Below are positions 33,404-51,134 of a stretch of DNA of 64,000 nt, in pieces. The position numbers were made by a program, and so were the translations under genes. Every line of letters starts with the position of its first letter. Position 1 is the first letter of the stretch. Location: positions 2,294,001-2,358,000 of the forward strand of contig NZ_CP031733.1 in NCBI RefSeq assembly GCF_003086355.1, read 5' to 3'. A model generated the notes under the pieces. It saw only the letters and a program-made list of their open reading frames with translations. It searched no databases and was not told the origin of the DNA. Source of the stretch: Streptococcus chenjunshii (GTDB taxonomy: Bacteria > Bacillota > Bacilli > Lactobacillales > Streptococcaceae).

Positions 33404-34903
33404 TTAGTCTTTCTGACCGACTACATAAGTCAGCTGTTTAGCTTGGGAAGCTGAGAAAGTACGGTAAGAAATAACACCGAGTCCCAGCGCATTAGATTCA
33501 GAGATTAGAACTGAACCGTCCTCTTTGACTTCTTCTACAATAGCGACATGGCCGTAGGTGCCATCAGCACCAGCCTGGCCTGGCGCAAACGAAACAGCGT
33601 ATCCAACTTCAGGCTTATGAACGGTTTCATATCCTGCCTTATTCTGCCAATCTCCGCCATTGCCCATATAGGCATCAAAGCGATAGCCCAGCTCCTCAGC
33701 ACGGTTAAAGACATACCAAGTACACTGTCCCCAAGGATAAGTTGCAGCAATATAACCAGAGGCGTTAACTGCAGTAGAGATACTGTATCCTACTGGAATT
33801 TCAGCATAAGTTACCCCTGAAATATTCTTCAGTTCTTCCGGAATTTCAGGAGTTCCGCCATGCTTATCGATCCATTCATCCAAATCTTCCATGATTTCTG
33901 CACGCTTTTTACCTGTCCCGGAAGTATCTGTAAAATAGACACCCCCGTCTGCAACAGTATCCAGCTGACCCAAAGCCAGTTTTTTAGCTTTATCGTCCTG
34001 CCGTTTAAAAGTCGTATTCTTATTTTGGATAATCGTTACCTTAGTCAGCTCACGAACTGCCTTTTCGTCATTATAATTAGCAGCATTCTCAGGATTGTTA
34101 TCAAAGGCGCCGTAACCAAAAACATTCGATCCGGGCAGTGCAGCAACACCCGCTGAACCGAGAGAGCTTTCAGCCATAGCAATAGCAACAATAGCACGAA
34201 CATCTAAACCGCTGGCTTCCTCCCACTCCAGCAGTTTTTTACCGTTAATACGGTTTTTATCATAGGATACTCCTGTTGAAGCCAGATAGCCGTCTAATTG
34301 TTCAGCAGTAATCCCGTAGCGATGGGATAACAAATTATGTGTATAAGCGTCATCACCCGTCCAGTGCTCAACATAAGCACGGTTAGTCGTTGTGGCATCA
34401 GCAATATCGCTGTCAGCAGAAAACGGCAGACCAAAAGCCATCAGTGGGCTGTTCAGGGGAGCGTCAGAGCCTTGCTTGACTGAAGAAGCCTTATCCGCAT
34501 TAGCTACTGACTGGCTGTTAATATTCTTTCCTGTTTTAGCTGTACCAGAGCCGGTGCTGGGTGCTGTAACTGCTTCTGTAGTTGTCGTCGTGCTGGTTGT
34601 TTCAGTCGTCGTCGCTTCTGTCACATCTGCTGGAGGTGTCTCCTCAGCAGGAGACTGCGCAGCACCGGAACCAGCATTTGCCCCTTCTTCATCAGCTTCG
34701 GAATCTTTATTAGTATCTGTATCAGGTTCCGTCACAGCCTCTTCTTCATCAGCAGGTTCGGCCTCTGTTGTGGTGGTCGTAGTCGTCGTTTCTGTCGGCG
34801 CATCATCCGCAATAATAGATGAGACCTGAGTTAATCCTGAAGCTTCTGATAAAATCAAGCCAGAAATAGTAAGCAATGCTAATAATTTTCTCTTGTAAGA
34901 CAT
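33404..34903 (-). CDS. Secreted peptidoglycan hydrolase with glucosaminidase-like and CHAP domains
   Basis: A 499-residue exported protein. It has a signal peptide (about 1-32), a Thr/Glu/Pro-rich low-complexity linker (about 35-185), a glucosaminidase/lysozyme-like region (about 185-345, with VAIAMAESSLGSAG) and a C-terminal CHAP amidase/peptidase domain (about 385-497). The CHAP catalytic cysteine is in PWGQCTWYV, the histidine in YGHVAIVEE, and the SESN segment follows. The probable role is cleavage of cell-wall peptidoglycan at division or remodelling. There is no LPXTG motif. AAGGAGAG precedes the ATG. The linker composition (TTTTEA) matches the neighbouring surface proteins. Confidence 0.85.
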   Translation of the reverse strand: MSYKRKLLALLTISGLILSEASGLTQVSSIIADDAPTETTTTTTTTEAEPADEEEAVTEPDTDTNKDSEADEEGANAGSGAAQSPAEETPPADVTEATTTETTSTTTTTEAVTAPSTGSGTAKTGKNINSQSVANADKASSVKQGSDAPLNSPLMAFGLPFSADSDIADATTTNRAYVEHWTGDDAYTHNLLSHRYGITAEQLDGYLASTGVSYDKNRINGKKLLEWEEASGLDVRAIVAIAMAESSLGSAGVAALPGSNVFGYGAFDNNPENAANYNDEKAVRELTKVTIIQNKNTTFKRQDDKAKKLALGQLDTVADGGVYFTDTSGTGKKRAEIMEDLDEWIDKHGGTPEIPEELKNISGVTYAEIPVGYSISTAVNASGYIAATYPWGQCTWYVFNRAEELGYRFDAYMGNGGDWQNKAGYETVHKPEVGYAVSFAPGQAGADGTYGHVAIVEEVKEDGSVLISESNALGLGVISYRTFSASQAKQLTYVVGQKD

Positions 34904-35627: not shown

Positions 35628-36860
35628 TCATTCTGGGGCTTCGATAGCAGAAACACGTATAGAACTTGTTTCTGATTTATTTTGCGCTGCATTAGTTGAA
35701 TAAACCTTTAGCTCATCATTTTCTTGAAGCACTGTGCCCTCAGGAACTGCGGCCGTGTAGCTGCCGTCACTGCCAGAAGTTATTTCAGCAGTTGTACCGT
35801 CCGCAAAAACGACAGTCACTTTGATATTCGGCTGAGCTTGGCCTGAAACAGTTCTGTCACCTGCTGTTACTGGTGAGAACTGCGGTTTTTGGTAATCTGT
35901 ATATTTAGGACGTGCTACAAAACTCAGTTTCGATTGCAGGTAGCTGTTCAAATCTTCCACAGCCACTCCCGGATGGTTATCATTATCATCTTCATCATGA
36001 GAATGCATGATTTTCCCTTCGCCAAGATAAATAGCGGTATGGAAAATGTTGCCGTAGTATTTCCCTGTCGTATCTTCCCCTTCAGGATCCTGTTTGGAGA
36101 AAAAGAGGATATCGCCTTTTTGATACTGCGGATTTTCTGGATTATTCAGCCAAACATCAGTCTGGCTGCTCTCAGTCGTCAGCCACTTGGCTAAACGCCA
36201 AGCTTGCCAGTCAAAGCTGGCAGTCGGTGCACCGAAATCAACATAATCACCGACAACGGTATTTTCATCTTCAACATAAGTTGTATGGCTAAAATCATAG
36301 CCGGCAAGAACCTGACCTACGAATGAGGAGCAGGTTATAGGATAAGGAGACGTAGTTTCCCGATGAACAATGCCATCCTTTAATGGAGGAAATCTGGTTG
36401 GATCCCATTTCAGCTGAGTGCCTGCATCCGCAAAAGTCTGAGCACGTTTGACAGCATCCTCAGCTGCTTCTGAATGATAGTCGCCTGTCGGTCCTGTCCT
36501 CAGATCTATCGGAACAGCCCATTTCCCATCAATTGTAGGAACAGCAATATTTTCCGAAACACCTGTCGGCTTTTCTTCTTTTATGATATAGGTCATACCG
36601 GCCCCATCATCGACCGACATATGACCGCGGGTCCGGACTATCCCTGACAGCCCTTTGGTATGCATTAGCTTATAATAAGTATCAACTTGTGTGACATTAT
36701 CACTTGTCTCGGATACAGCATCATCTCTCATTTCTGTTTTTTGCTCTGTCGTTTCGGCATGAAGAACAGACCGTTCAGGTATAGCTGCTATCAGGCTGAA
36801 AGTGAGAACTGCACTAATTGCAATGGTCCCAAATTGGGGCATTTTTCCTAAAATTGTCAT
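35628..36860 (-). CDS. Secreted NlpC/P60-like cysteine hydrolase with Ig-like C-terminal domain
   Basis: A 410-residue exported protein. It has a signal peptide (about 1-35), a spacer, and a papain-like NlpC/P60-type domain with likely catalytic Cys177 in the ITCSSF segment and His274 in NIFHTAIYLG. A C-terminal bacterial Ig-like module (about 330-405, containing GQAQPNIKVTV and GSDGSYTAAVP) may bind the wall or a partner. Muropeptide cleavage is the likely activity, but the domain is divergent. ATG 36860 is chosen for AAGGGAGA upstream; a frame extending to 36983 has no signal-peptide logic. No LPXTG is present. Confidence 0.75.
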   Translation of the reverse strand: MTILGKMPQFGTIAISAVLTFSLIAAIPERSVLHAETTEQKTEMRDDAVSETSDNVTQVDTYYKLMHTKGLSGIVRTRGHMSVDDGAGMTYIIKEEKPTGVSENIAVPTIDGKWAVPIDLRTGPTGDYHSEAAEDAVKRAQTFADAGTQLKWDPTRFPPLKDGIVHRETTSPYPITCSSFVGQVLAGYDFSHTTYVEDENTVVGDYVDFGAPTASFDWQAWRLAKWLTTESSQTDVWLNNPENPQYQKGDILFFSKQDPEGEDTTGKYYGNIFHTAIYLGEGKIMHSHDEDDNDNHPGVAVEDLNSYLQSKLSFVARPKYTDYQKPQFSPVTAGDRTVSGQAQPNIKVTVVFADGTTAEITSGSDGSYTAAVPEGTVLQENDELKVYSTNAAQNKSETSSIRVSAIEAPE

Positions 36861-37071: not shown

Positions 37072-37713
37072 GTGCTCACGGGAGCAACAGTTACAGTGGT
37101 TGATAAAGCAGAGACAACAACCACTACAGAAGCGGCTACCACTACAGAAGCAGCTACTACTACGGAAGCGACTACCACTACAGAAGCAGCTACTACTACG
37201 GAAGCGGCTACTACTACAGAAGCAGCTACTACTACAGAAGCGGCTACTACTACAGAAGCAGCTACTACTACGGAAGCGGCTACCACTACAGAAGCGGCTA
37301 CCACTACAGAAGCAGCTACTACTACGGAAGCGACTACCACTACAGAAGCAGCTACTACTACGGAAGCGGCTACTACTACAGAAGCAGCTACTACTACAGA
37401 AGCGGCTACTACTACAGAAGCAGCTACTACTACGGAAGCGGCTACCACTACAGAAGCAGCTACTACTACAGAAGCGGCTACTACTACAGAAGCAGCTACT
37501 ACTACGGAAGCGGCTACCACTACAGAAGCAGCTACTACTACGGAAGCGACTACTACAGTGTCAACAGGAGCTAATAATAAAGGCGGTAAATCTGGTTCAA
37601 ACAAAGGTTTACCAAATACAGGTGAACGAGCAGGTTTCTTCCTAACAGTTCTCGGCCTCATTATTATTGTTTTAGCTGGCAGTTACTTCTTTTTTATCAA
37701 AAAACATAGTTAG
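37072..37713 (+). pseudogene. C-terminal remnant of an LPXTG surface protein with TTTEAA repeats
   Basis: The frame encodes about 213 residues. Roughly two dozen hexapeptide repeats of the type ATTTEA (18-bp DNA units) are followed by the sorting signal LPNTGE, a hydrophobic segment and a KKHS tail. There is no signal peptide and no ribosome site. The frame is closed by a stop at 37051 and could begin only at a GTG (37072). It therefore looks like the 3' end of a larger adhesin whose front was lost. The Thr-rich linker resembles those of the genes at 33404 and 42573. If translated, it could not be exported normally. Confidence 0.6.
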
Positions 37714-37800: not shown

Positions 37801-40800
37801 ATGAAAGTTTTTATAAAAAATAACAAAGCCCTTATCATTACAGTTAATATGGCGGTCCTTTTATATTTGAACTCCTCCACTATCTTTGCAGAAACAACAG
37901 ATATCTCTTCCATAACAACAGGAACAGAGTCATCAAATATGATACAAGAGACTATTTCTGCAGATGGTAATAACGAACATTCAGCTAATGATTCTGAGGC
38001 TATTATTTTATCAAAAGAAAATAATGATGGATCAACAGTTACAATAGAGAACGAACAAGCTGTGTTGGAACAAAATCTACCAGAAATAAATACATCAGCT
38101 GTCAATAATGATACAGAAAACTACTCGGAAGAACTGCAGATCTCTGAAACCGAAGCAGATACATCAGTCAATGCAAACAATATTGGTGATATAAAAACTT
38201 TAGCAGAGGTAAATATTACAAACAGCAAATTAGGGGCACATGTCCCCGCATCAGCTACAGATTTTGTTGTTAATGTCAAAGATAGCCCATATAGTGCTGT
38301 AGGAGACGGTCAAACAGATGATACAGCAGCAATTCAAAAAGCAATTGATACTGCAGCTGCAACGGGCGGCGGCATTGTGGATATTCCCGCCGGTACCTAC
38401 CTGATTGACACCGTGAAATATCTGATCGATCCGAATCAGACGTACAGGGGAGGGCTGCAACTGAAAAGCAACGTTACCCTGCGCATGGCGGACGACACCG
38501 TGCTTCAGGCTATCCCCAACGGTGAGAAAGCTTACGCCCTGATCAGCATCTTTAACGCGGACAATGCCCATGTGATCGGCGGTACGATGATCGGCGACCG
38601 CGACACCCATACTTCGCAGGAAGGCCAGACCGGATACGGCGTGCGCATTGCGCATGCTACCAATGTGGTTGTTGAAAACGTAACCGCCAAAGAATTCTGG
38701 GGCGACGGCTTTTTTGTGTCGGAAGGGCACAGCAGGATAGAACGCGGCAGTGAAAACATCACGTTTTACCGCATTGTTTCCGACCACAACCGCCGTCAGG
38801 GCCTGTCCATCGTCAGCGGCAGGAACATCAAGATACTGAACTCCGAATTCAGCAATGCCGACGGAACGGATCCGCGTGCAGGTATCGATATCGAGCCCGA
38901 CAGGGGAACAGACCAGGTCAGCGATGTGGAAATACGCGACAGCGTGTTTACGGGTAATTATTATGGTCTTGTCGTCGGCAACCACTGGCGCGGCGCTTCG
39001 ATCAAGAACGTCACTTTCGTCAACAATACCTTGAAGGACAACAAGGTCGACGTCAACCTGGTCGGGCTGGAAGGCGGGCTTATTGCCGACAACACCATTT
39101 ACAACGATCACAGCGTCAACCAGTACAATCCGAACGATCGCCTCCACTACGGCATCCGACTGCAAAACGGCACCCATATCGCGACGCAGAACGTCACCGT
39201 CAAGGACAATACGATTTACGGCGGCAATGTTGTCGACAGCACCGGCAGCGGCAGCAATACCGTCGAAAACAACGCATATAAACCAGCGGTCTATATCCGC
39301 GGCATAGCGCACGCAGGGCAAACCCTGACCGCACAGGTATATGATGGCGACTACGGCGAGCCGAACGTGCATAAGGCCGTGCTGGTTCCGTCCTCCGCCA
39401 TTTCCTACCAGTGGTTTGCCGACGGCGCGCCCATTGACGGCGCGACACAGTCCACTTATGTACCGACCGATGCCGACAGCGGCAAGGCCATTACCGTGCA
39501 GGTGCAGTTTACCGACAAGGCGGGCAATGCCGAAACGGCGCTCAGCGCCGCCACCCAGCCGGTGAACTATGTCAACAGCGCGCCGACCGGCATCCACCTG
39601 TCGCCGCTGGTCATCCACGGCGATACCTATCAGGCGGAGCTAGCAGGCAACCTGAAAACCACCGACCCCGATGCGAACGACACCCACACCTACACCGTCA
39701 GCGACAGCCGTTTTGAAATCGTGCACGGGGACACTCTACGCCTGAAAGAGGGGCAATACCTTGACTACGCCGGCGAAAAAAGCGTTACCCTGACGATTAC
39801 CGCCACAGACCCGTTCGGCGCCAGCTACAGTCAAACCTTTACACTGGAAGTGGTTCCTTCCAAAAATATAGCGCCGCAGGGAATCACGCTTTCCGGCGAC
39901 AAATTGGCAGAAGGGCAGACAGGAGCCATTGTGGGGCAGCTGACCACGCTTGACCCCAATATCGGCGACACACACACCTACACCGTGAGCGATGCACGTT
40001 TTGAAGTGACTGCTGATGGTATACTAAAACTGAAAGAAAACGAGAAAGTCGAGTATGTTAATGAAGATACTATCACTCTACAAGTAATTGCAACTGATAA
40101 AGCAAATAGAATTTATACTAAAACGTTCGTCTTGCAGGTGCAAGATGATCCTAGTTATCCTATTATTCCTCAATCAGATAATGAAAATGGAGACAATACT
40201 GAGACAGAACCATGTGATGCCTCTGAAACAGCTACCACTACCAGCATAGTATTTTCACGCAGTGATATGGGCAACTATTCTGAAGACCCACTGATTCCTT
40301 ATATTGGTGAATGGGGGGCAACAGATCCGGCATATATTGAACAAGCGGAAATAATAAAAAATAAAGGTGGTCGTAAGTTTTTACCTTACGTTAACACAGT
40401 GCACGGACTAGTCAATTATCCAGAGATAGCTGAAGAATTAGGTATTACGAACGCAGCCGACTATACGAAAGAATTTATATTGAACGAAATAGCTACGGCA
40501 AAAAAAATTTATGGCGATTTAATGGACGGTGTCTTTTTAGACACTTTCACATCCGGATTGGGAAATTGGTGGCGTCCGACAGTTCCATGGTATAAAGATT
40601 TAGTGGATAGCATTCGTGAAATTTATGGTGAAGACTTTTTTATTGTTGGGAATCCAGGAGAAAAAGTATCTGATGAAGTGTTAAACCTAGATGTTGATGT
40701 TTTAATCACATTTGAAGGAACAGCAGAAAAATATTTGACCTCCGATGTGCATCCGGATAATATGGCACTGGCACATGCTGATAGCTCCCGCTTGTGGCAT

Positions 40801-41952
40801 GTCGTATATAATATTACAAAAGATAATATTAATGATGTACTGGCCAAAGCCGATTCAATGAATATAGATCATCTATGGTTATCTGATGGAGAAATTATCA
40901 ATGGACCTAGACGTGATGGTATGCCAGCACAATCTCCTTATAAAGATGTTCCTAGCGATTGGGTAATTGAAGCGATGATAGAATGGCAAAATAAAAAAAT
41001 GCCTTCAGGGAACGATCTAGAAAATGGTTCAAGATATATTAGTCCAATTTCATATTGGAATCCAGATTCTTTAGATTATGCTGATAGGCATAGGTATGAA
41101 AATATATTAAAATTAACCGATAGACTTGGTATTGTATTGATGAGCCATTATGAAGGTTTGTCTTGGAATATGAAAGATATAGCCACATTAAGATATCAAT
41201 TAAGTTGGTCTGGTTTTGAAGATGTGGATACTGATTTATCCAATTATATGTATCGCATAAAGGTCCCTACAAACGTTAAGGTGCAGAGCTACACAGATAT
41301 CGTGTGGGAAGATGGATTAGATGGATACTTCTATGCTCCTGCACAAATAGGAAATAAAGCATTGTGGCTAGAATATAACGGTACAGATGAATCCACTGAT
41401 CCGTGGACAATTGAATTTGATATCGTAGATAAAGAAACCAAAGAGCCTATTTGTAATAAAATAGGTTCTAGCATAACACACAATGTTGCTTGGATAGAAT
41501 ATAACAATGTCGATGAAAACACAATATCTGACGACACAAAAGCTACCGAGGATATGGCAGGAAATGAAGATGCAGATAAAACGATAGAGGAACAACTCAA
41601 ACCCTCTATAGAAAGTTCTACTTCTGCAAATGTAACTGTAGATACACTACTAACAGAAGAAACTCAAAAATCGTCCTCTGAAACAGTCATTTCTGCTGAG
41701 AATAAAACTACTACTCAGGTTGCTTCTCCTAAAGATGCTCTCCTTATTGCAGCTAAAAATGATAGCAAAAAATTCACACCGACAGTCTCTAATGGTAAAC
41801 TCAACGAATTTGAAGAGTTACCAAATACGGGAGATAGCGAGGGAAAGTCCTCTTTTCTAACTACTTTGATTGCCAGTCTGCTTCTTTTTTTCAATTATTG
41901 TATTTTTATTGCAAAAAAGGTAACTACTTTATTCACTAAAAACCAACGATAA
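37801..41952 (+). CDS. Chimeric LPXTG surface protein: beta-helix, Ig/cadherin-like modules, spherulin-4-like domain
   Basis: A 1383-residue wall-anchored protein. A signal peptide (1-30) and a Ser/Thr/Glu-rich region (to 150) lead into a right-handed beta-helix of the pectate-lyase-3 / alginate-epimerase type (about 152-490; GDGQTDDTAAIQKAI start). Next come an Ig-like module (about 495-595), two cadherin-like repeats (about 600-790) and a spherulin-4-like domain (about 815-1065; DGVFLDTF and VLITFEGT). A region of unknown fold (1078-1230), a spacer and the sorting signal LPNTGDS (about 1340) follow, then a membrane segment and basic tail. Beta-helix proteins of this type act on or bind acidic polysaccharides; spherulin-4 relatives include galactosaminogalactan hydrolases (GH135/GH114-like). 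Target polysaccharide unknown. GAAAGG precedes the ATG. Confidence 0.8.
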   Translation: MKVFIKNNKALIITVNMAVLLYLNSSTIFAETTDISSITTGTESSNMIQETISADGNNEHSANDSEAIILSKENNDGSTVTIENEQAVLEQNLPEINTSAVNNDTENYSEELQISETEADTSVNANNIGDIKTLAEVNITNSKLGAHVPASATDFVVNVKDSPYSAVGDGQTDDTAAIQKAIDTAAATGGGIVDIPAGTYLIDTVKYLIDPNQTYRGGLQLKSNVTLRMADDTVLQAIPNGEKAYALISIFNADNAHVIGGTMIGDRDTHTSQEGQTGYGVRIAHATNVVVENVTAKEFWGDGFFVSEGHSRIERGSENITFYRIVSDHNRRQGLSIVSGRNIKILNSEFSNADGTDPRAGIDIEPDRGTDQVSDVEIRDSVFTGNYYGLVVGNHWRGASIKNVTFVNNTLKDNKVDVNLVGLEGGLIADNTIYNDHSVNQYNPNDRLHYGIRLQNGTHIATQNVTVKDNTIYGGNVVDSTGSGSNTVENNAYKPAVYIRGIAHAGQTLTAQVYDGDYGEPNVHKAVLVPSSAISYQWFADGAPIDGATQSTYVPTDADSGKAITVQVQFTDKAGNAETALSAATQPVNYVNSAPTGIHLSPLVIHGDTYQAELAGNLKTTDPDANDTHTYTVSDSRFEIVHGDTLRLKEGQYLDYAGEKSVTLTITATDPFGASYSQTFTLEVVPSKNIAPQGITLSGDKLAEGQTGAIVGQLTTLDPNIGDTHTYTVSDARFEVTADGILKLKENEKVEYVNEDTITLQVIATDKANRIYTKTFVLQVQDDPSYPIIPQSDNENGDNTETEPCDASETATTTSIVFSRSDMGNYSEDPLIPYIGEWGATDPAYIEQAEIIKNKGGRKFLPYVNTVHGLVNYPEIAEELGITNAADYTKEFILNEIATAKKIYGDLMDGVFLDTFTSGLGNWWRPTVPWYKDLVDSIREIYGEDFFIVGNPGEKVSDEVLNLDVDVLITFEGTAEKYLTSDVHPDNMALAHADSSRLWHVVYNITKDNINDVLAKADSMNIDHLWLSDGEIINGPRRDGMPAQSPYKDVPSDWVIEAMIEWQNKKMPSGNDLENGSRYISPISYWNPDSLDYADRHRYENILKLTDRLGIVLMSHYEGLSWNMKDIATLRYQLSWSGFEDVDTDLSNYMYRIKVPTNVKVQSYTDIVWEDGLDGYFYAPAQIGNKALWLEYNGTDESTDPWTIEFDIVDKETKEPICNKIGSSITHNVAWIEYNNVDENTISDDTKATEDMAGNEDADKTIEEQLKPSIESSTSANVTVDTLLTEETQKSSSETVISAENKTTTQVASPKDALLIAAKNDSKKFTPTVSNGKLNEFEELPNTGDSEGKSSFLTTLIASLLLFFNYCIFIAKKVTTLFTKNQR
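38360..40015 (+). other. GC-rich segment of probable foreign origin inside the chimeric gene
   Basis: Codon choice switches abruptly to G/C-ending codons (GCC, GGC, ACC, GAC, CTG) at about 38360 and back to A/T-ending codons near 40015, without breaking the frame. The switches fall inside the beta-helix and inside the second cadherin-like repeat, not at domain borders. The flanks are typical of the host. This is direct compositional evidence for import from a GC-rich donor. The block also has long open frames on the opposite strand, as expected of GC-rich coding DNA. Confidence 0.8.
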
Positions 41953-42572: not shown

Positions 42573-44315
42573 CTAAGCTTTTTTACGGCCGGCAAAGAAT
42601 AACCCTGCAACAGAGAGAACAGTGATACCTGCTAACATAACAACTGTATTTTCCTGATCACCTGTGCTTGGCAGTTTTTTCTTAGATTTGCTGCCTTTAT
42701 CACCACTTGTAACCGGAGCAGGTGTCGTGCTAGTGCTCGATTCTTGGCTACCGGCAGGTGGAGTTGTTTCCTCTGGAGTCGTAGTCAGAGTTGTTGGTTC
42801 TTCCGTTGTTGTCGTTGAACTTTCTGTTGTGGCAGCCGCTGTTGTAGTGGTCGGCGCTGCTGTTGTGGTCGTCGGACTTTCCGTTGTAGTAGTCGCTGTT
42901 GTGGTGGTTGGCGCCGCCGTCGTGGTCGTCGGACTTTCTGTTGTAGTAGCCGCTGTTGTGGTGGTTGGCGCTGCTGTCGTGGTCGTCGGACTTTCTGTCG
43001 TGGTAGAGGTTGTTGTCGTAGTGGTAGTTGTTGTCGTGGTTGTTACAACAGGCTCATTGACAACATCCCTTGAAACAGATTTATCGCTGCCAAAATCACT
43101 TTCTGAGATTTTAATAGGATCAGCTAAGGTTTGATACCCTGAAGGTGCCTGTATCTCTGTAATCGTATAGTTCCCTTTCAGCAGTCTGGTAATGGTCACA
43201 TTGCCTTCCGAATCAGTTGTGAAATCACCAACAACTTCACCATTAGCATCGCGCGTGACTCTAAATACAGCTCCTGAAAGCGAACCGCCATCAGCAGATA
43301 CTTTATGCAGGTTGATAGAGTAAACATAACCTTCTGCACTGCCACCAGCTTCTTTGTAGGTTTCCCGATAATTGACACGAGCCAGTTCAGTTCCATTTGC
43401 TACCAGTGTAGCCCTGTTGAAAAAGTTCTCACCGTCTGCCGGTTTATAGGAAGGCACAACATCGTAAGTGATATAATAGCCATCTTCCGCATTGATGTCT
43501 CCTAAATTAACCGAAAAACCACTGCCATCTTCAGTATAATTAACTGTAAACTCACTAGTAACGTCAACACCATTTTGAAAGACCCAGCTGCCATTCTGTG
43601 CCACCCAAGTGCCTTTTTCAATTTTAAACGTTTCAGGCAAATAGCTGACTCCAACGGACTGTAAACTATCGGTCACAACAGCTGATAGAAGGCCGACTCC
43701 AGCACGGTTAATCGGTACTTGATAGTGAATGACATCGTCAGAACTGATCCAGCCTGATTTTGTTAATGTTGTCTGTCTTGCCTCCCCGACACCATTATAC
43801 TCTACAGAGCCTGCATCAAATGTTCTTCCTTCTATATCTAACACAACTGGAACTGTCCCTGCCTGTGTCACCACATTGTGGTTAATATAAACATAGAAAA
43901 AGAATGAACCAGTTACGTCTGAATGTGTTTCTACATAATTTGTATAAGTCAGAACAACCTGTCTACTGGATGGATCAATCACTGCATTAGCTACAAGATT
44001 GCCATCTGTATCCCGGATTTCAAATGCTTTCGAGTCGCCAAAAGCCAGATTAGCCGGTAAATTCATTGTCGTTGTATCACCAGCTTTTACCTGACCGTTG
44101 GGCAGACTGAAATTAGCATTAATTCTGAATCTCTCATATCTGTTAAGACCGTGATCCAAAACAGCCCCCCGTTCATCAGTGATACTCAGGGATGTGATCA
44201 CATTATCCTGTGCCGCAGCTGAAACCTGGTGTTCTTTTAGCCAGAGGCCAGCAACGAGAAACACTGTTGCCAACAATAAGGAAACGATTGTTCCTATTAG
44301 TTTTCTTTTTTTCAT
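42573..44315 (-). CDS. LPXTG adhesin, Cna/Cnm-like collagen-binding type
   Basis: A 580-residue wall-anchored protein. It has a signal peptide (about 1-35), an N-terminal region with the fold features of Cna-type collagen-binding or SdrG-like adhesin domains (about 40-345), one Cna_B module (about 348-435; NLHKVSADGGSLSGAVFRV) and a Thr/Glu/Ser/Pro repeat linker. The sorting signal KLPSTGDQE, a hydrophobic segment and GRKKA end the protein. The layout resembles the collagen-binding proteins Cnm/Cbm of mutans streptococci, but the ligand is inferred. The second of two adjacent ATGs is used because of AGAGG spacing. A consensus promoter lies at 44384-44412. Confidence 0.82.
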   Translation of the reverse strand: MKKRKLIGTIVSLLLATVFLVAGLWLKEHQVSAAAQDNVITSLSITDERGAVLDHGLNRYERFRINANFSLPNGQVKAGDTTTMNLPANLAFGDSKAFEIRDTDGNLVANAVIDPSSRQVVLTYTNYVETHSDVTGSFFFYVYINHNVVTQAGTVPVVLDIEGRTFDAGSVEYNGVGEARQTTLTKSGWISSDDVIHYQVPINRAGVGLLSAVVTDSLQSVGVSYLPETFKIEKGTWVAQNGSWVFQNGVDVTSEFTVNYTEDGSGFSVNLGDINAEDGYYITYDVVPSYKPADGENFFNRATLVANGTELARVNYRETYKEAGGSAEGYVYSINLHKVSADGGSLSGAVFRVTRDANGEVVGDFTTDSEGNVTITRLLKGNYTITEIQAPSGYQTLADPIKISESDFGSDKSVSRDVVNEPVVTTTTTTTTTTTTSTTTESPTTTTAAPTTTTAATTTESPTTTTAAPTTTTATTTTESPTTTTAAPTTTTAAATTESSTTTTEEPTTLTTTPEETTPPAGSQESSTSTTPAPVTSGDKGSKSKKKLPSTGDQENTVVMLAGITVLSVAGLFFAGRKKA

Positions 44316-44383
44316 CATAAACCTCTTTATTCATGTTTATTACTGTTATACCGCCTTGCACAGCACCTGTACATAGCGTTAAA

Positions 44384-44650: not shown

Positions 44651-45616
44651 CTATAGATTAGGCGAGCTTTTTTTATTGACGATAACTGTCCCTGAACCTG
44701 TAAAAATATTGCCCAAATTATCGAGGGAAGTGATGACAGCCCGTGACTGGGGATGAGACTGGACAAAAGCTACAGCCGCTTCAACTTTAGGCAGCATACT
44801 GCCTGCAGCAAACTGACCCTCTGCTATATAAGCATTCATTTCGTCAGTTGTTACTGTTCCAAGCTGCTTTTGCCGAGGGGTGTTGAAATTGATATAGACA
44901 TGGCTCACACCGGTCAGAAGAACAAATACATCAGCTGCAATCAGATCTGACAGTAAACCGCTAGCAAAGTCTTTATCAACAACTGCTTCAACACCCGTCA
45001 GAGTTTTTGTTTCCGGGTCCTCAGCAACCGGAATTCCGCCGCCGCCCGCTGTAATGACGACAGTTTCAGCAGCAAGAAGCTGCTTAATAGTAGTAATTTC
45101 TCTGATACTGACCGGCTTTGGGGAAGGAACGACCTTGCGCCAGCCTCGGCCAGCATCTTCCTTGAAAACTTCTGTGCTCTTCTTCTGCTGGTGCCGCACT
45201 TCTTCTTCAGATAAAAAAGGGCCAATCGGTTTTGAAGGGGCAGCAAAGGCCGGGTCGTCCCAATCGACCACGACTTCTGTTACAACTGATGCAACTTCTT
45301 TTTTTAGACCCTGACGGTTTAATTCATTAATCAGCGCTGTCTGCAGCCAGTAGCTGATACTACCTTCTGTCATAGCCACTAAGGTATCCAGAGGCATGGC
45401 TGGGTTTTCAGGAGAATCCGCAGCCAACTGCTGCAGAAGAAGATTGCCAACTTGCGGGCCGTTCCCGTGTGTAATAACAATATCATCTCCGTTTCTAATA
45501 AATGCCACCAGATGTTTGGCTGTATCAGCCAGAGCTCTTTGCTGGGCCTGAGCTGAACTGTCTGCAGTTAAAATAGCGTTTCCTCCCAAAGCAATCACGA
45601 TTCTTCGTTTCACCAT
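44651..45616 (-). CDS. aguC: Carbamate kinase of the agmatine deiminase pathway
   Basis: A 321-residue amino-acid-kinase-fold enzyme. It converts carbamoyl phosphate and ADP to ATP, CO2 and ammonia. The ALGGNAIL N-terminal phosphate loop, ITHGNGPQVGN, ITAGGGGIPV and VDKDFASGLL segments are diagnostic. As the last gene of aguB-aguD-aguA-aguC it yields the ATP of the pathway. An ArcC of an arginine deiminase system would look alike; operon context makes it AguC. Confidence 0.95.
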   Translation of the reverse strand: MVKRRIVIALGGNAILTADSSAQAQQRALADTAKHLVAFIRNGDDIVITHGNGPQVGNLLLQQLAADSPENPAMPLDTLVAMTEGSISYWLQTALINELNRQGLKKEVASVVTEVVVDWDDPAFAAPSKPIGPFLSEEEVRHQQKKSTEVFKEDAGRGWRKVVPSPKPVSIREITTIKQLLAAETVVITAGGGGIPVAEDPETKTLTGVEAVVDKDFASGLLSDLIAADVFVLLTGVSHVYINFNTPRQKQLGTVTTDEMNAYIAEGQFAAGSMLPKVEAAVAFVQSHPQSRAVITSLDNLGNIFTGSGTVIVNKKSSPNL

Positions 45617-45742
45617 AATCTTTTCTCTCTTTTTAGTTTTATAATAAAGAAAAGGGAAAACAAGTGCGTTTGTCTCCTTTTTCTTTCTGCTCTTAAAATA
45701 TAAATACTGACCCGTTTATCCCCAAAGGACAGCAGATCATGT

Positions 45743-46840
45743 TTAAACCTTAGGCTGATGCTGCGTGATACAATGAATATTGCCGCCGCCGTAAGCAATT
45801 TCTTCTGTTCTAACACCGACAACCTCATGATCCGGAAACATTGCAGCTACCTGCCTCATAGCTAAATCGTCATTTTCATCACCGTATTGCGGTAAAATAA
45901 TACCGCCATTGACAATCAAAAAGTTCATATAAGAAGCTATTGAAACTTCTCCTTCCCTACGCGGCAAAGTCCCTTCGACAAAGTCAATGGTATCTGCCCC
46001 TTTAAGATAGCAAGGTTTTTGAGTTACGCACAGTTTGTGCACCTTAAGTCTGCGGCCTTTTGCATCAACAGCATTCATTAATGTTCTGTAAGCTGCCTGT
46101 GCTTCCTGATAAAATGGGTGATCTTGATCTTCAGTATAGATACAGGCAACTTCTCCGGGTCTGATAAAGCAAGCAACATCATCAATGTGGCCATTTGTTT
46201 CATCAGGGTCTATTCCATCTTTTATCCAAATAATTTTTTCAAGATTTAAATGCTCTTTCAGTTTTTCTTCAATAGCATCTTTGCTCATATGGGGATTGCG
46301 TCCTTCGCTCAGCAAGCACATTTCAGTCGTAATCAGAGTGCCCTCACCATCTACAGTGATAGACCCGCCCTCCAAAACAAAATTATCTGTGCGATAAGAA
46401 TCTATCCCTTCAATTTCACAAATTTTTTGCGCCACTTGGTCATCTTTGTCCCAAGGAAAATAAAGACCGTCTACTAATCCGCCCCAAGCATTGAAAACCC
46501 AGTCGTTAGCCCGAAGCTGACCTTTATCATTGACAAGAAAGGTAGGACCGCAGTCTCTTACCCAAGCATCGTCTGAAGACATTTCAACCAGCCTGACCTC
46601 TTCGGGCAGATGGGCTCTGGCATTCTGATACTGATCAGCACTGACACACATTGTGACAGATTCAAAACGGCTGATTGCGCTGGCGACATTAACAAAGGCT
46701 ATCTGAGCCGGCTTACCGCCATTACGCCAGTTATCCGGCCGTTCCGGCCAGATCATCCAGACCTGCTGCTGCTTTTCAAATTCTCCCGGCATCCGAAAGC
46801 CATCCTGCCTAGGAGTTGTCTTTAATATACGTTTTGCCAT
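45743..46840 (-). CDS. aguA: Agmatine deiminase
   Basis: A 365-residue enzyme of the guanidino-modifying superfamily. It hydrolyses agmatine to N-carbamoylputrescine and ammonia. The DCGPTF segment near 94, the EGGSI segment, the NGHIDD catalytic His/Asp and the nucleophilic cysteine of [10 protein letters not shown] near the C-terminus are present. GGAGG precedes the ATG. A repeat array starts 11 nt upstream of the start codon and separates it from aguD. The ammonia raises cytoplasmic pH, a known acid-tolerance role in mutans streptococci. Confidence 0.96.
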
Positions 46841-46850
46841 AACATACCTC

Positions 46851-47290
46851 CACCAAGATACAAAGGCCGTGAAGAACGCAAAGAGAAAATAGGAGACTGG
46901 ACGAAGAGCCGCAAGACTCTAGGACAGGCTATCTTTTTCTCACAGCGTTTAGGCCGTGTTCAATTCCACCAAGATACAAAGGCCGTGAAGAACGCAAAGA
47001 GAAAATAGGAGACTGGACAAAGAGCCGCAAGGCTCTAGGACAAGCTATCTTTTTCTCACAGCGTTTAGGCCGTGTTCAATTCCACCAAGATACAAAGGCC
47101 GTTAAAAACGCAAAGAGAAAATAGGCGGTAAGTCCGAAATCTATGATTTCGCAGACGCACCCCTGCCAAGATGACTAGAAGGGTGCGGTCGGCTGTTAAG
47201 ACGACAAAGCCTTCAGTCATCTACGACTGGCTAAGCCTCAAATGGCAGGATCCCTCACTCCCGCAGCGTTTAGGCCATTCTTCATTTGAT
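46851..47290. repeat. Three tandem copies of the structured intergenic repeat
   Basis: Copies lie at 46851-46966, 46967-47082 and about 47083-47290. The first two are exactly 116 bp and differ at only about three positions, one of which restores an AGAGCC/GGCTCT stem in the tip. The third is a longer variant with the GTAAGTCCGAAATC block. The array fills the aguD-aguA gap and its right end almost touches the aguD stop codon. Confidence 0.9.
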
Positions 47291-47295
47291 ACAGA

Positions 47296-48654
47296 TTAAG
47301 TTTTTATTTTTTTAACAGCAATGATCGCTTCTCCTATCATAATAAAAATAACCGAACCGATAGTAACCGGCAGCTGCTCCGCCAACGTTTCAGCAGTAAA
47401 AGATAAAGGCAGAGCTGTAAAAATCAGTGAAATAATAATTAAAAGCATAGGAGCAGCAACCAGTAGTTTGAGCAAACTTTTCCCGCCGCCCACTTTAAAA
47501 GGACGAGGATGATCGGGATCAATCTCCCGAAGTTTATAGAATGCAGGAAATACTGGAACATAAGAAAGCAAAAACATAACCAGATTCAGCGAGAAAAACG
47601 ACCAAAATAAGTCCTGATTAGGCAGCAAAGGGGCTACCGCCACCACAAGGCTGGCTACTGCTCCGTTAGCAATCGCTGCACCGATCGGCATATCGTTTTT
47701 TGAGCTTCTTTTAGCAAAGAAAGCTGGCATATCTCCATTTTGGGCAGCATAGGAAGCCGTATTGTTCACCCCTAATGACCAAGAAATCATATTGCCAAAA
47801 AGGGTTAACAAGAATAAGAAAGCCATTAAGATAATAAACCAGCCTGTACTTGACCCTGTTAACAGCTGAAAACTGTCCATCATCCCGCTGCTTGTTGAAA
47901 TTTGGTCAACCGGAATGGCCACCCCGATGCCAAAGGCCGAAAAAATATAGATAGCAGCGATAACTAAGCCAGCTGCAATTATAGACTGAGGAATTTGTTT
48001 TTTAGGATTTTCCATACCATCTGCAAATGTACAGATAACCTCAAAGCCCAGCAAGTTAAAAATGATGACTGATATATAAGACAGGCTGTTGATATTAAAA
48101 GAGGGCAGCAGAGAACGGAGAGTCATCTCATTGGCCATACCTTTCGTGAAGGCAACGTAAAGTCCCAGTCCGCCCACCAGCAAGGCTAAAATCATTTTAA
48201 TAAGCGCTGCTCCATTTAAAATCCAAATACTGTCACTCACCGGATAAAAACTAATCCATACGATAAGCCAGATAAAAAGCAGCTCCAGTACAAGAGCAGA
48301 CAGGGTTGTAAAACGAAAACCTGTAATGGTTGTCAGCAAACCGGGTGTCATAACGGCTAAAGAAGCCAGCCAGAGTGGAAAATTGATCCAGTAATACCAA
48401 GAGACACGCGATCCCCACCGATGGCCAAAAGCCTTGGTTACCCAGTCATAAATGCCCCCTTCTCCAATATAGCTTGTTCCCAGCTCGGAAGAAATCAAAC
48501 CGTAAGGAAGAAGGAAAGCCAGCAAAAGAAAAATCCACCAAAAAAACTGGGAATTTCCTATTGCAGCTACTGGGGCAGCTGCTTCTGCAACAAAAACGAC
48601 ACAGATAACAGAAAGTACAGCGCTAAACAGGCTAAATTTTTTCTTTTCTACCAT
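47296..48654 (-). CDS. aguD: Agmatine/putrescine antiporter
   Basis: A 452-residue APC-superfamily transporter with about twelve hydrophobic segments. It exchanges external agmatine for internal putrescine. The N-terminal VFVAEAAAPVAAIGNSQFFW segment and GEGGIYDWVTKAFG are typical of this antiporter family. ATG 48654 follows AAAGGA; the frame extends further upstream without support. It lies between aguB and aguA, as in S. mutans and Enterococcus. The aguB-aguD spacer 48655-48954 shows no gene. Confidence 0.92.
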   Translation of the reverse strand: MVEKKKFSLFSAVLSVICVVFVAEAAAPVAAIGNSQFFWWIFLLLAFLLPYGLISSELGTSYIGEGGIYDWVTKAFGHRWGSRVSWYYWINFPLWLASLAVMTPGLLTTITGFRFTTLSALVLELLFIWLIVWISFYPVSDSIWILNGAALIKMILALLVGGLGLYVAFTKGMANEMTLRSLLPSFNINSLSYISVIIFNLLGFEVICTFADGMENPKKQIPQSIIAAGLVIAAIYIFSAFGIGVAIPVDQISTSSGMMDSFQLLTGSSTGWFIILMAFLFLLTLFGNMISWSLGVNNTASYAAQNGDMPAFFAKRSSKNDMPIGAAIANGAVASLVVAVAPLLPNQDLFWSFFSLNLVMFLLSYVPVFPAFYKLREIDPDHPRPFKVGGGKSLLKLLVAAPMLLIIISLIFTALPLSFTAETLAEQLPVTIGSVIFIMIGEAIIAVKKIKT

Positions 48655-48954
48655 AAAATTGTCCTTTCCAGCAGCTATAAGAAAGGAAGCAAAACAGTTC
48701 AAACAGTCTCGGGTAAAGCATACAAGAGGAAACAGCAATCAGTATGTCATAAGAAATTAACTGTCTCTTGCCCCGGTCTTCATACTAGAGCTTAAATAAT
48801 GCTGTTCCCTTTTCCCGTACAACGAACCAGATTCTAAAAACCTCTACTAAAAGAAGCGAAGAATCCAGCAAACCGCTGCAGGGTCCGCTTTTAACAAGTC
48901 AAAGAAATCTAGAGACTTTCGGATTCGCTCCCTTTTTTGCTGTCTTTCTATTAC

Positions 48955-49965
48955 CTATGATAACAGGTCCTCTAATTCTAATTTAGCTTTCGCCTGCTTG
49001 TCTGTATCATAAGGATTTTTTTGAGCAAAATCTCTCATTAGGTAAACCAATAAGCCGCGAATTGAAGTCAAACGGTTCCCTGCTTGTTCAAAGCAAATAG
49101 ACTGCGGACCATCCATAACTTGGTCTGTGACCTCTTCACCTCGGGTAGCAGGCAGGCAGTGCATAAAACGGCATTGATCTCCAGCCTTAGCCAAGAGCTG
49201 TTCATTCACTTGATACTTAGGATAGAAAATCTGCATCCTTTCCGCTTCTGACAGTTCCGCTTCATATAAGCCGTACCAAACATCGGTATAAAGGAAATCC
49301 GCTCCTACAACAGCCTCCTCATCGTCCGTAACCGCGTAGTTCCCCCCTGACTGAGCACAGATACTGTCCAGTATAGCCTGATGCCTTTCATTTAACTGAA
49401 AACCTTTAGGACCGAAATGGATAAATTCCATCCCCATTTTAGTCGTCATCAAACCGACTGAAAAGCAGACTTGTGTTGCATCACCTACAAAAACAACTTT
49501 ACAGTCTTCTAACTGTTTGCCGGTTGGTAAATGTTCCAGCATTGTACATAAATCACCAAGTTCCTGAGTTGGATGATTATAATCAGACATCCCGTTAATA
49601 ACCGGGACAGATGCACAGCGTGCTAAATCGACGACACTTTGGTGGCGCTCTACACGCGCCATTAAAATATCATCTAAACGGGATAAAACAGTACTTGTAT
49701 CTTCAATGGTTTCATGGCCCCCAAGCTGAATCTGCCCTGGAGCTAAATACTGAGCATGCCCGCCCAGCTGTGTCATCGCTGTTTCAAATGAAACCCGAGT
49801 GCGAGTAGAGGACTGCTGAAAAATCATGCCGAGAGTTTTATGCTTAAGCAAAGGCGGATAATAGCCATTTTCAATACAAGCCTTAATCTTAAGGGATAAG
49901 TTTGCTATATTGAGCAGTTCTTCTTTGCTAAACGATTCTGTGGTGATATAATCCGTTTTTTTCAT
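48955..49965 (-). CDS. aguB: Putrescine carbamoyltransferase
   Basis: A 336-residue transcarbamoylase. It converts N-carbamoylputrescine and phosphate to putrescine and carbamoyl phosphate. The carbamoyl-phosphate motif [10 protein letters not shown] is near 52, and HPTQELGD and [10 protein letters not shown] are present. It resembles ornithine carbamoyltransferase, but the agmatine operon context and a C-terminal helical extension ([18 protein letters not shown]) support putrescine specificity. ATG 49965 follows AAGGAGA; eleven in-frame upstream codons are excluded. It is the first gene of the operon. Confidence 0.94.
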
Positions 49966-49997
49966 AATGTCCGTCTCCTTATTCTTCTTTTGCAGCA

Positions 49998-50027
49998 ATT
50001 ATATCCCTAAAAAGAAAACGTTTACAA
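49998..50027 (-). promoter_or_regulatory. agu operon promoter with overlapping cre site
   Basis: On the minus strand TATAAT (complement of 49998-50003) has a poor -35 (TGTAAA) 17 bp upstream. The -35 lies inside TTGTAAACGTTTTCT (complement of 50013-50027), which matches the cre consensus WTGNAANCGNWNNCW at every position. CcpA bound here would block RNA polymerase, and the weak -35 suggests an activator is needed. Confidence 0.75.
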
Positions 50028-50077
50028 TAATCTTTGCGTTCTAATCTTAACGTATAAAAAAACAAGCCCTGAATAAG

Positions 50078-50146
50078 GGTTTATAAAAGGTTTAGACCGA
50101 GGTTTATAAGGTTCAACCTAAAGAGTTTATTCGTCTATGATATAAT
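50078..50146. promoter_or_regulatory. GGTTTA direct repeats and the aguR promoter
   Basis: Four GGTTTA-like units begin at 50078, 50089, 50101 and 50110, spaced about 9-12 bp, between the divergent agu and aguR promoters. They are candidate AguR sites. On the plus strand an extended -10 (TGATATAAT, 50138-50146) lies about 30 nt before aguR, with no clear -35. Confidence 0.5.
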
Positions 50147-50177
50147 TTAGATAGTAAAGGATAGGGGGTGATACTAT

Positions 50178-51134
50178 ATGACTTTGATTTACATTTACAA
50201 TCTTTTGCTTACTATTCTCTATACAACAACATTAGCCCTGTGTTTCCACAATTTTCTTTTTGAAAAGAGTCAGCACATCAAAAAAGGTTTACTGGCTCTA
50301 ACTGTTTTCTTTATTTTTTTCACCTTGGATAATTGGATTATTTCTATGACAGAGCTCATTGCTTCCTTTGAGAGATACTATAATCAGACTTTCTCTGGAC
50401 TTCCTCTGATTAAAACGGTTACCTTTCTGGTCAGAAACTATTGCATGATTTATACCATCAGATTACTGAAGCAGGAGAACGTTTGGGCTGCTGATTATGT
50501 TCTTTTAACAGTAAATATGATTTGGATGCTGATTATGCCGCTCTTCCCCAGCTCACAAACACAGGTCTTCCTTTATTATCTCCCCAATCAATTGTTTTTA
50601 GCCTACTGCGGACTTCAGGCTGTTCCGAGAAATACAAAACCTCTCAATCAAATCAGTCAAAAATATTTAAAAAAAGCTGCTCTGGTGATGATGCTGTTTG
50701 CCTTCTTGATTTTACTGGAAGACAGTTTTGTTATTTTTAACATTGATAACTATGACAAACTGGCTATGCGCATTCAAAATCGTAATTTTTCTGAAGATCT
50801 TTTTTCTGTTTCTGTTTCTATCATTACGATTGCCTATCTCATAAGAGATTACCCTCATCATAAACAAACGGAAAGAAGGAAACTCGATAAAGAAGAAAGA
50901 GCAAAATATTACATTGATGCTTTTTGCCGAGATTACCAGCTCACCAAACGGGAGAAAGAGATTTTCCTTTTACTTCTTGAACATCGGCATAATCAGGAAA
51001 TAGCGGATGCACTCTTTTTATCTTTAGGAACTGTCAAAACTCATATCCACAACATTTATGTAAAGCTTAATGTCAACAAACGTGAAGCTATTGATGATTT
51101 TTATCAGACATACTGCCAAAAACTGAAAGACTGA
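50178..51134 (+). CDS. aguR: LuxR-type membrane regulator of the agmatine operon
   Basis: A 318-residue protein with about six or seven hydrophobic segments (residues 1-225) and a C-terminal LuxR-type helix-turn-helix (about 250-315: LTKREKEIF, EIADALFLSLGTVKTHIHNIY). AguR of S. mutans and lactococci is a membrane-bound activator that senses agmatine, and this gene has the same divergent position from aguB. AGGGGGTGAT precedes the ATG. The sensing mechanism is inferred from relatives. Confidence 0.88.
   Translation: MTLIYIYNLLLTILYTTTLALCFHNFLFEKSQHIKKGLLALTVFFIFFTLDNWIISMTELIASFERYYNQTFSGLPLIKTVTFLVRNYCMIYTIRLLKQENVWAADYVLLTVNMIWMLIMPLFPSSQTQVFLYYLPNQLFLAYCGLQAVPRNTKPLNQISQKYLKKAALVMMLFAFLILLEDSFVIFNIDNYDKLAMRIQNRNFSEDLFSVSVSIITIAYLIRDYPHHKQTERRKLDKEERAKYYIDAFCRDYQLTKREKEIFLLLLEHRHNQEIADALFLSLGTVKTHIHNIYVKLNVNKREAIDDFYQTYCQKLKD

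What the first reader, a model, noticed from the sequence alone, without database searches (positions are those of the whole stretch)
37801..41952. LPXTG protein joining an epimerase/lyase-like beta-helix, cadherin-like modules and a spherulin-4-like domain
The reading frame is intact from signal peptide to LPNTG anchor. It holds two carbohydrate-related catalytic-type folds usually found in different organisms: a pectate-lyase-3/AlgE-like beta-helix and a spherulin-4/GH135-114-like barrel. Ig/cadherin-like spacers and a 150-residue region of unknown fold accompany them. One inference is a wall-anchored enzyme that trims exopolysaccharide in mixed biofilms, such as galactosamine-containing or uronic polymers. 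I know of no described streptococcal protein with this architecture.
Basis: partly seen in the sequence, partly recalled or inferred. Interest (0 to 1): 0.8.

Follow-up and report, generated by a model that had tools for sequence, protein, structure and literature searches.

The report
Mosaic wall-anchored streptococcal glycan protein
A streptococcal surface protein has been pieced together from parts with different DNA origins, including a sugar-handling module also carried by very different bacteria, and it sits in a genome that can make the kind of slime its second sugar-handling domain is built to recognise.

Summary
In detail: 37801-41952 (+) is one intact 1383-aa frame with signal peptide, AlgE-fold beta-helix (143-492), Ig-like and two cadherin-like modules (493-790), spherulin-4 (Sph3-fold) barrel (about 805-1060), a further beta domain and LPNTG. 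Both folds are of enzyme type, but the beta-helix lacks AlgE's Asp152/His154 and has its own invariant set (GDG, RRQG, DIEP), shared with phage tail proteins. The barrel keeps Sph3's Asp/Glu pair (D914, E972), while the third putative catalytic acid is Thr (T915; Glu in 16 of 18 rows).

New: (1) the gene is a sharp mosaic: codons 187-730 have third-position GC 0.72, the rest 0.25, host genes 0.33-0.50. (2) The beta-helix/Ig/cadherin cassette occurs with other anchors in Cardiobacterium, Neisseria, Johnsonella and Lachnoanaerobaculum, and a shorter relative in a Saccharibacterium. (3) The genome has a pel operon and a second LPXTG spherulin-4 protein with all three acids; Sph3 is reported to disrupt streptococcal Pel aggregates.

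Best reading: a wall-anchored matrix protein whose barrel engages Pel-type GalNAc polymer while the beta-helix engages another glycan. Activity is unproven.

The parts
37801..41952 (+). whole gene, 1383 aa
   Evidence: open frame; 91% identical full-length homologue P0001
37801..37893 (+). signal peptide, about residues 1-31 (no YSIRK motif)
   Evidence: read directly from the translation
37894..38226 (+). Thr/Ser/Asn/Glu-rich N-terminal region, residues 32-142; residues 1-142 are the fastest changing part (76.1% to P0001)
38227..39276 (+). right-handed beta-helix, residues 143-492; PF12708 N-cap; motifs WGDG 300-303, NRRQG 330-334, GIDIEP 361-366
39277..39570 (+). Ig-like domain, residues 493-590
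   Evidence: homology to repeated Ig modules of Cardiobacterium/Neisseria proteins
39571..40170 (+). two cadherin-like domains, residues 591-690 and 691-790
   Evidence: PF00028 in homologues, PF08758 sub-threshold here
38359..39990 (+). GC-rich in-frame segment, codons 187-730 (GC3 0.715 against 0.251 outside)
   Evidence: change-point analysis, codon strings
40213..40980 (+). spherulin-4 / Sph3-like (beta/alpha) barrel, residues about 805-1060
40540..40545 (+). D914 (Sph3 Asp166 position) and T915 (Sph3 Glu167 position, Glu in 16 of 18 rows)
40714..40716 (+). E972 (Sph3 Glu222 position), Glu in 18 of 18 rows
40981..41550 (+). second, mainly beta domain, residues about 1061-1250, next to this barrel also in P0071 and P0075; fold not settled
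41818..41832 (+). LPNTG sorting motif, residues 1340-1344, followed by hydrophobic stretch and positive tail to 41949
   Evidence: read directly
35628..36860 (-). divergent neighbour: NlpC/P60-like + Big_6 protein (410 aa with the start used by P0132); PF00877 is below its cut-off here
   Evidence: 56% identical to the N-terminal half of P0071, whose C-terminal half is 60% identical to residues 808-1244 of the finding

Best explanation
It is a sortase-anchored matrix protein of a Streptococcus that can make Pel. SHOWN: the coding sequence is a mosaic of a GC-rich beta-helix/Ig/cadherin segment and a low-GC spherulin-4 plus anchor part. The spherulin-4 barrel resembles Sph3 in sequence and predicted fold and keeps the two residues used as nucleophile and acid/base. 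The same genome encodes a pel operon. INFERRED: the wall-proximal barrel engages alpha-1,4-GalNAc polymer made by its own cell (Pel) or by neighbours, binding it and possibly cutting it slowly. The beta-helix head, held out on the Ig/cadherin arm, engages a second glycan through the invariant GDG/RRQG/DIEP face. The protein would thus tie or trim the matrix at the cell surface in mixed biofilm. The cassette was most likely acquired from other bacteria of the same community, with recombination inside the conserved module.
Against: T915 replaces an otherwise conserved Glu, so hydrolysis may be lost. The gene lies about 0.68 Mb from the pel operon and I had no expression data. Pel operons are reported from several streptococci (PMC7112168), yet the barrel was found in 1 of 197 genus genomes, so it is no general part of Pel biology; how many of the 197 have pel was not tested. 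The C-terminal model is moderate (pLDDT 69.9), Foldseek's own superposition on Sph3 is loose (TM 0.28-0.30 by query length, rmsd 8-11 A), and the profile of A1 did not find Sph3 by sequence. The beta-helix ligand is unknown. Without the DNA of the Lachnospiraceae homologues the source of the GC-rich part is not settled: composition points to Cardiobacteriales-type DNA, the tree to the Lachnospiraceae rows.
Confidence: 0.5

Rival explanations
1. Two-headed wall-anchored enzyme: the beta-helix acts as a lyase/epimerase/hydrolase and the barrel as an active GH135 endo-alpha-1,4-N-acetylgalactosaminidase, trimming exopolysaccharides.
For: Both folds are enzyme types. Asp/Glu pair kept. The beta-helix has an invariant polar face (D302, R332, Q333, S336, E365 in 28 of 28 rows), and relatives include phage proteins annotated as tail spikes.
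Against: AlgE's Asp152 and His154 are not matched in either register considered. T915 stands in the barrel. The similar beta-helix of PfbA showed no catalytic arrangement and no activity (PMC3718772, passages).
Confidence: 0.2
2. PfbA-like adhesin for host glycoproteins: beta-helix and barrel are both catalytically dead and serve as binding surfaces.
Against: Outside the N-cap the sequence is not PfbA-like (about 50-56 residues match in 14 other genus genomes). The closest homologues are Gram-negative and Lachnospiraceae proteins. The kept Asp/Glu pair and 98.5% identity of the barrel to P0001 speak for more than a scaffold.
Confidence: 0.2
3. Peptidoglycan- or wall-glycan-handling protein working with the neighbouring NlpC/P60-like protein.
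For: P0071 joins the two neighbours' halves in one protein. A spherulin-4 gene lies just before a lysin gene in Streptococcus phage vB_SthS_VA460.
Against: No spherulin-4 family enzyme known to me acts on peptidoglycan (recalled). Streptococcus sp. H31 has the neighbour (76%), but no full-length relative from it appeared, which scored a capped set of candidates. One fusion only.
Confidence: 0.08

Closest known systems
Sph3 / GH135 (Aspergillus spherulin-4 family, PF12138)
   Different: Thr at the Glu167 position; joined to a further beta domain, Ig/cadherin arm, beta-helix and LPXTG anchor; activity untested
AlgE-type mannuronan C5-epimerases (AlgE4, AlgE6, 8ja4)
   Different: Asp152 and His154 not matched; a different invariant set (GDG, RRQG, DIEP)
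PfbA (Streptococcus pneumoniae LPXTG beta-helix adhesin)
   Different: No spherulin-4 barrel; clear sequence similarity restricted to the N-cap
Beta-helix/Ig/cadherin proteins of Cardiobacterium, Neisseria, Johnsonella, Lachnoanaerobaculum; shorter relative in a Saccharibacteria MAG
   Same: Module 143 to about 790 at 43-59% identity in the first four; beta-helix + Ig only (40%) in the Saccharibacterium
   Different: Choline-binding repeats, Ig arrays or an apparent N-terminal hydrophobic segment instead of LPXTG; no spherulin-4 barrel
P0075 and P0071, spherulin-4 proteins with sortase-type ends
   Same: Barrel plus following domain at 47% and 60%; ends LPKTG and SPKTG
   Different: YSIRK/MucBP or NlpC/P60 partners instead of the beta-helix cassette; Glu at the 915 position
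Phage tail spikes and fibres (PHROG 2234, crAss001 gp22 7qoj)
   Same: Beta-helix with the same motif set
   Different: At most 42% identity among the 80 viral-contig loci kept; virion proteins

Membership tests
GH135 / Spherulin4 (PF12138) | Profile match over the curated cut-off | tested here: met
   42.2 bits against 30.2; 45.6 bits in genome search
GH135 / Spherulin4 (PF12138) | (beta/alpha)8 barrel like Sph3 | tested here: met
GH135 / Spherulin4 (PF12138) | Nucleophile Asp (Sph3 Asp166) and acid/base Glu (Sph3 Glu222) | tested here: met
   D914 and E972, mapped through P0131 to 5c5g (the two residues are 56 apart in the chain, as 166 and 222 are); 18 of 18 rows each
GH135 / Spherulin4 (PF12138) | Third putative catalytic acid (Sph3 Glu167) | tested here: not met
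   T915 here and in P0001; Glu in 16 of 18 rows. Hence described as a spherulin-4-fold protein, not filed as an active GH135 enzyme
GH135 / Spherulin4 (PF12138) | Endo-alpha-1,4-N-acetylgalactosaminidase activity | not testable with these tools
   needs purified protein
AlgE mannuronan C5-epimerase A-module | Parallel beta-helix with the AlgE-type N-cap | tested here: met
AlgE mannuronan C5-epimerase A-module | Catalytic Tyr149, Asp152, His154, Asp178 (list from PMC7385640) | tested here: not met
   In the printed alignments Tyr149, Asp152 and His154 fall on D302, F305 and S307; Asp178 lies beyond the matched part. In an alternative register, shifted by one coil and resting on recalled AlgE4 letters, Tyr149 and Asp178 would meet Y279 and D302, but Asp152 and His154 would meet R282 and A284. 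No residue-level structural alignment was available
PfbA-type surface adhesin | LPXTG-anchored beta-helix with PfbA-like sequence along the helix | tested here: not met
   The 14 other genus genomes that match do so only within residues 11-66 of the segment; phmmer to 3zpp is significant only for 152-209
Sortase-anchored surface protein | Signal peptide, LPXTG, hydrophobic stretch, positive tail | tested here: met
   Read in the translation; PF00746 was not listed at E <= 1
Phage tail spike family PHROG 2234 | Profile match and virion context | tested here: not met
   Profile 97.4 bits, but the gene ends in LPNTG and none of the 20 other window genes scanned (one of which had no Pfam family) matched a phage structural family

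The most novel reading that the evidence does not exclude
The 650-residue beta-helix/Ig/cadherin cassette is a glycan-handling module passed between phyla within dental-plaque-type communities, each receiver hanging it on its own anchor. In this Streptococcus, recombination inside the module joined it to a spherulin-4 barrel that has turned from hydrolase into Pel-binding lectin, so that the protein physically links a cell's own Pel matrix to a partner's glycan, while the second LPXTG spherulin-4 protein remains the cutting enzyme.
Probability: 0.25. Interest if true: 0.78.

Novelty: new variant of a known kind. Interest (0 to 1): 0.58.

Why it matters
Pel was recently reported to drive aggregation of Streptococcus intermedius (PMC12345266), but I saw no sortase-anchored protein that reads Pel in the listings of my searches (only the top rows of long lists, open-licence papers only). 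This gene supplies a candidate, with a paralogue that keeps all three acids as a built-in comparison. It is also a clean example of foreign DNA of very different composition inside one reading frame, with breakpoints resolved to a few codons, which makes module transfer in biofilms directly testable.

Tried and rejected
Viral-contig scans with P0024 and with the whole protein found no relative, so no viral contig was seen to carry the cassette itself. In plasmids no record holds 80% of the protein in one place; 47 records match parts, the 15 listed ones mostly in the Ig/cadherin region. No clean empty site: 6 of the 12 same-genus relatives were fetched; the 6 keep hsp33-dus, none shows this gene or its NlpC-type neighbour in the fetched stretch (tblastn hits over 60 bits; one stretch was only 6.2 kb), what follows differs, and L082 has SpaA-type relatives there (36% and 22%). 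Assembly chimera rejected because P0001, from another assembly, spans both junctions. AlgE membership rejected on Asp152/His154. The profile of A1 found no spherulin in the PDB by sequence, so Sph3 was reached through P0131 and by fold. Foldseek superpositions were loose for both models (beta-helix rank 1: TM 0.48, rmsd 16.9; barrel), and I rely on VIA-align, whose lists exclude no other family. That the named cassette carriers are oral is recalled. The beta-helix alignment A2 used 27 of the 117 proteins, chosen by me for simple architecture; A1 used all 17. Tree rows were BLAST pieces spanning at least about 180 query residues (150 for loci); shorter ones were dropped. One search scored only the 7989 candidates sharing most words.
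Full report
THE OBSERVATION. The frame at 37801-41952 (+) is intact for 1383 codons, starts with a signal peptide and ends in LPNTG (1340-1344), a hydrophobic stretch and a positive tail (read directly; PF00746 was not listed). Pfam places PF12708 at 157-204 and Spherulin4 at 841-1030, both over cut-off. P0001, from another assembly, is 91% identical end to end. By segment, identity to P0001 is 76.1% (1-142), 91.7% (143-492), 89.8% (493-590), 88.0% (591-790), 98.5% (791-1060), 94.7% (1061-1250) and 90.2% (1251-1383). The barrel is therefore the most constrained part.

A MOSAIC GENE. Third-position GC jumps from about 0.2-0.3 to about 0.6-0.85 and back. A two-change-point fit (segments of at least 50 codons) gives codons 187 (185-196) and 730 (728-733), GC3 0.715 inside and 0.251 outside, with a log-likelihood gain of 148. 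The largest gain in 17 other genes of 400 or more codons in the window is 8.1, and in 20 shuffles of this gene's codons 9.5. 24 host genes of the window have GC3 0.33-0.50, so both parts differ from the host. The switch takes only a few codons at both ends, while identity to seven homologues continues across it (43-68% in the edge stretches 143-186 and 731-785, 45-73% in the segments between). The simplest reading (inference) is recombination within the conserved module: a GC-rich copy replaced the centre of a GC-poor one. P0001 spans both junctions, which speaks against an assembly error.

THE CASSETTE ELSEWHERE. Residues 143 to about 790 match Johnsonella ignava (57%) and Lachnoanaerobaculum gingivalis (56%) proteins that carry choline-binding repeats, Cardiobacterium (52-53%) and Neisseria (43-48%) proteins with Ig/cadherin modules, and, for beta-helix and Ig only, a Saccharibacteria MAG protein of 574 aa (40%). 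The C. hominis DNA is 64.6% identical over 1.6 kb, with GC3 0.774, and that genome has 110 matches to residues 143-600, most of them to the Ig part only. In the order of C. hominis 4 of 32 genomes hold the beta-helix. In a tree of 93 rows (59 different) the window and P0001 are sister to 55 rows that include the Johnsonella and Lachnoanaerobaculum proteins (99/99), within a wider set that also holds Cardiobacterium and Neisseria rows (93/95); the root is a midpoint and outer branches are long. Composition and tree thus point to different nearest sources, which the missing Lachnospiraceae DNA would settle. In the genus, 15 of 197 genomes match the segment, one of them the own genome and the other 14 only over its N-cap. 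The barrel region is in 1 of 197 genus genomes and 1 of 398 phylum genomes, each time the own one.

GENOME CONTEXT. The divergent neighbour (35628-36860) has Big_6 over cut-off and NlpC/P60 below it; it is 56% identical to the first half of P0071, whose second half is the barrel region. In the genus its NlpC part was matched only in the own genome (1 of 197; 12 others match only the Ig part). Its nearest named relative is from Streptococcus sp. H31 (76%), then Actinomyces proteins, some named C40 peptidases (43-49%). Six fetched relatives keep hsp33-dus but show neither gene beside it. The own genome has a second spherulin-4 protein (480 aa, LPKTG, Pfam 131.9 bits) with the three acids in place, found in 1 of 197 genus genomes. 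It also has a pel operon: PelG 387.8 bits, PelF 338.3 bits over cut-off, a DUF2194 protein, a DUF4832 protein, an epimerase, and two proteins in the pelD and pelE positions, assigned by position only. Gram-positive pel clusters, with DUF4832 genes in streptococci, are described (PMC7112168, passages). In S. intermedius, Pel aggregates are disrupted by PelA and Sph3 but not Ega3 (PMC12345266, abstract and passages). That makes GalNAc polymer the most likely ligand of the barrel.

CONCLUSION. Shown: intact architecture, mosaic composition, family and fold assignments, residue states, pel operon. Inferred: transfer route, binding or slow cutting of Pel-type polymer, a glycan-binding head, the tether role. 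The individual folds are known. I did not meet the combination, the within-gene mosaic or the pairing with Pel in the database and paper searches made. For papers these show only the top rows of some long lists, and only open-licence papers are held.

Noticed in passing
window 37072-37713 (+): Open frame of TTTEA-type repeats ending in LPNTG, a hydrophobic stretch and a positive tail, with no convincing start: looks like the tail end of a lost LPXTG protein between the NlpC-type gene and the finding.
   Followed up: partly
G000:C1 about 593018-594460 (locus L018 850-2292, +): Second LPXTG-anchored spherulin-4 protein, 480 aa, LPKTG, with the Asp-Glu and Glu acids of Sph3 in place; seen in 1 of 197 genus genomes.
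   Followed up: yes
locus L191 3906-14184 (G000:C1:1642000-1660000, -): pel operon (pelF and pelG by profile, pelD and pelE by position) with a DUF4832 gene and an epimerase gene next to rapZ-cofD-whiA.
   Followed up: yes
window 33404-34903 (-), 42573-44318 (-): A CHAP-domain protein and an LPXTG protein with Big_8/SpaA domains and long Thr-rich repeats flank the finding: a block of surface genes between dus and the agmatine-type operon.
   Followed up: partly
window 44651-51134: Amino acid kinase family, peptidyl-arginine/agmatine deiminase family, amino acid permease, carbamoyltransferase and LuxR-type regulator: probably an agmatine deiminase operon.
   Followed up: no
locus L002 7530-9254: Saccharibacteria MAG encodes the same type of beta-helix plus an Ig-like domain with an N-terminal hydrophobic segment.
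   Followed up: partly
locus L187 6737-8026: S. thermophilus phage vB_SthS_VA460 hypothetical protein with a spherulin-4-like barrel, a short way downstream of the holin and just before the lysin; possible phage enzyme against Pel-type polymer.
   Followed up: no
P0071: Single protein joining the NlpC/P60-Big_6 half and the spherulin-4 half that are two neighbouring genes in the window.
   Followed up: yes
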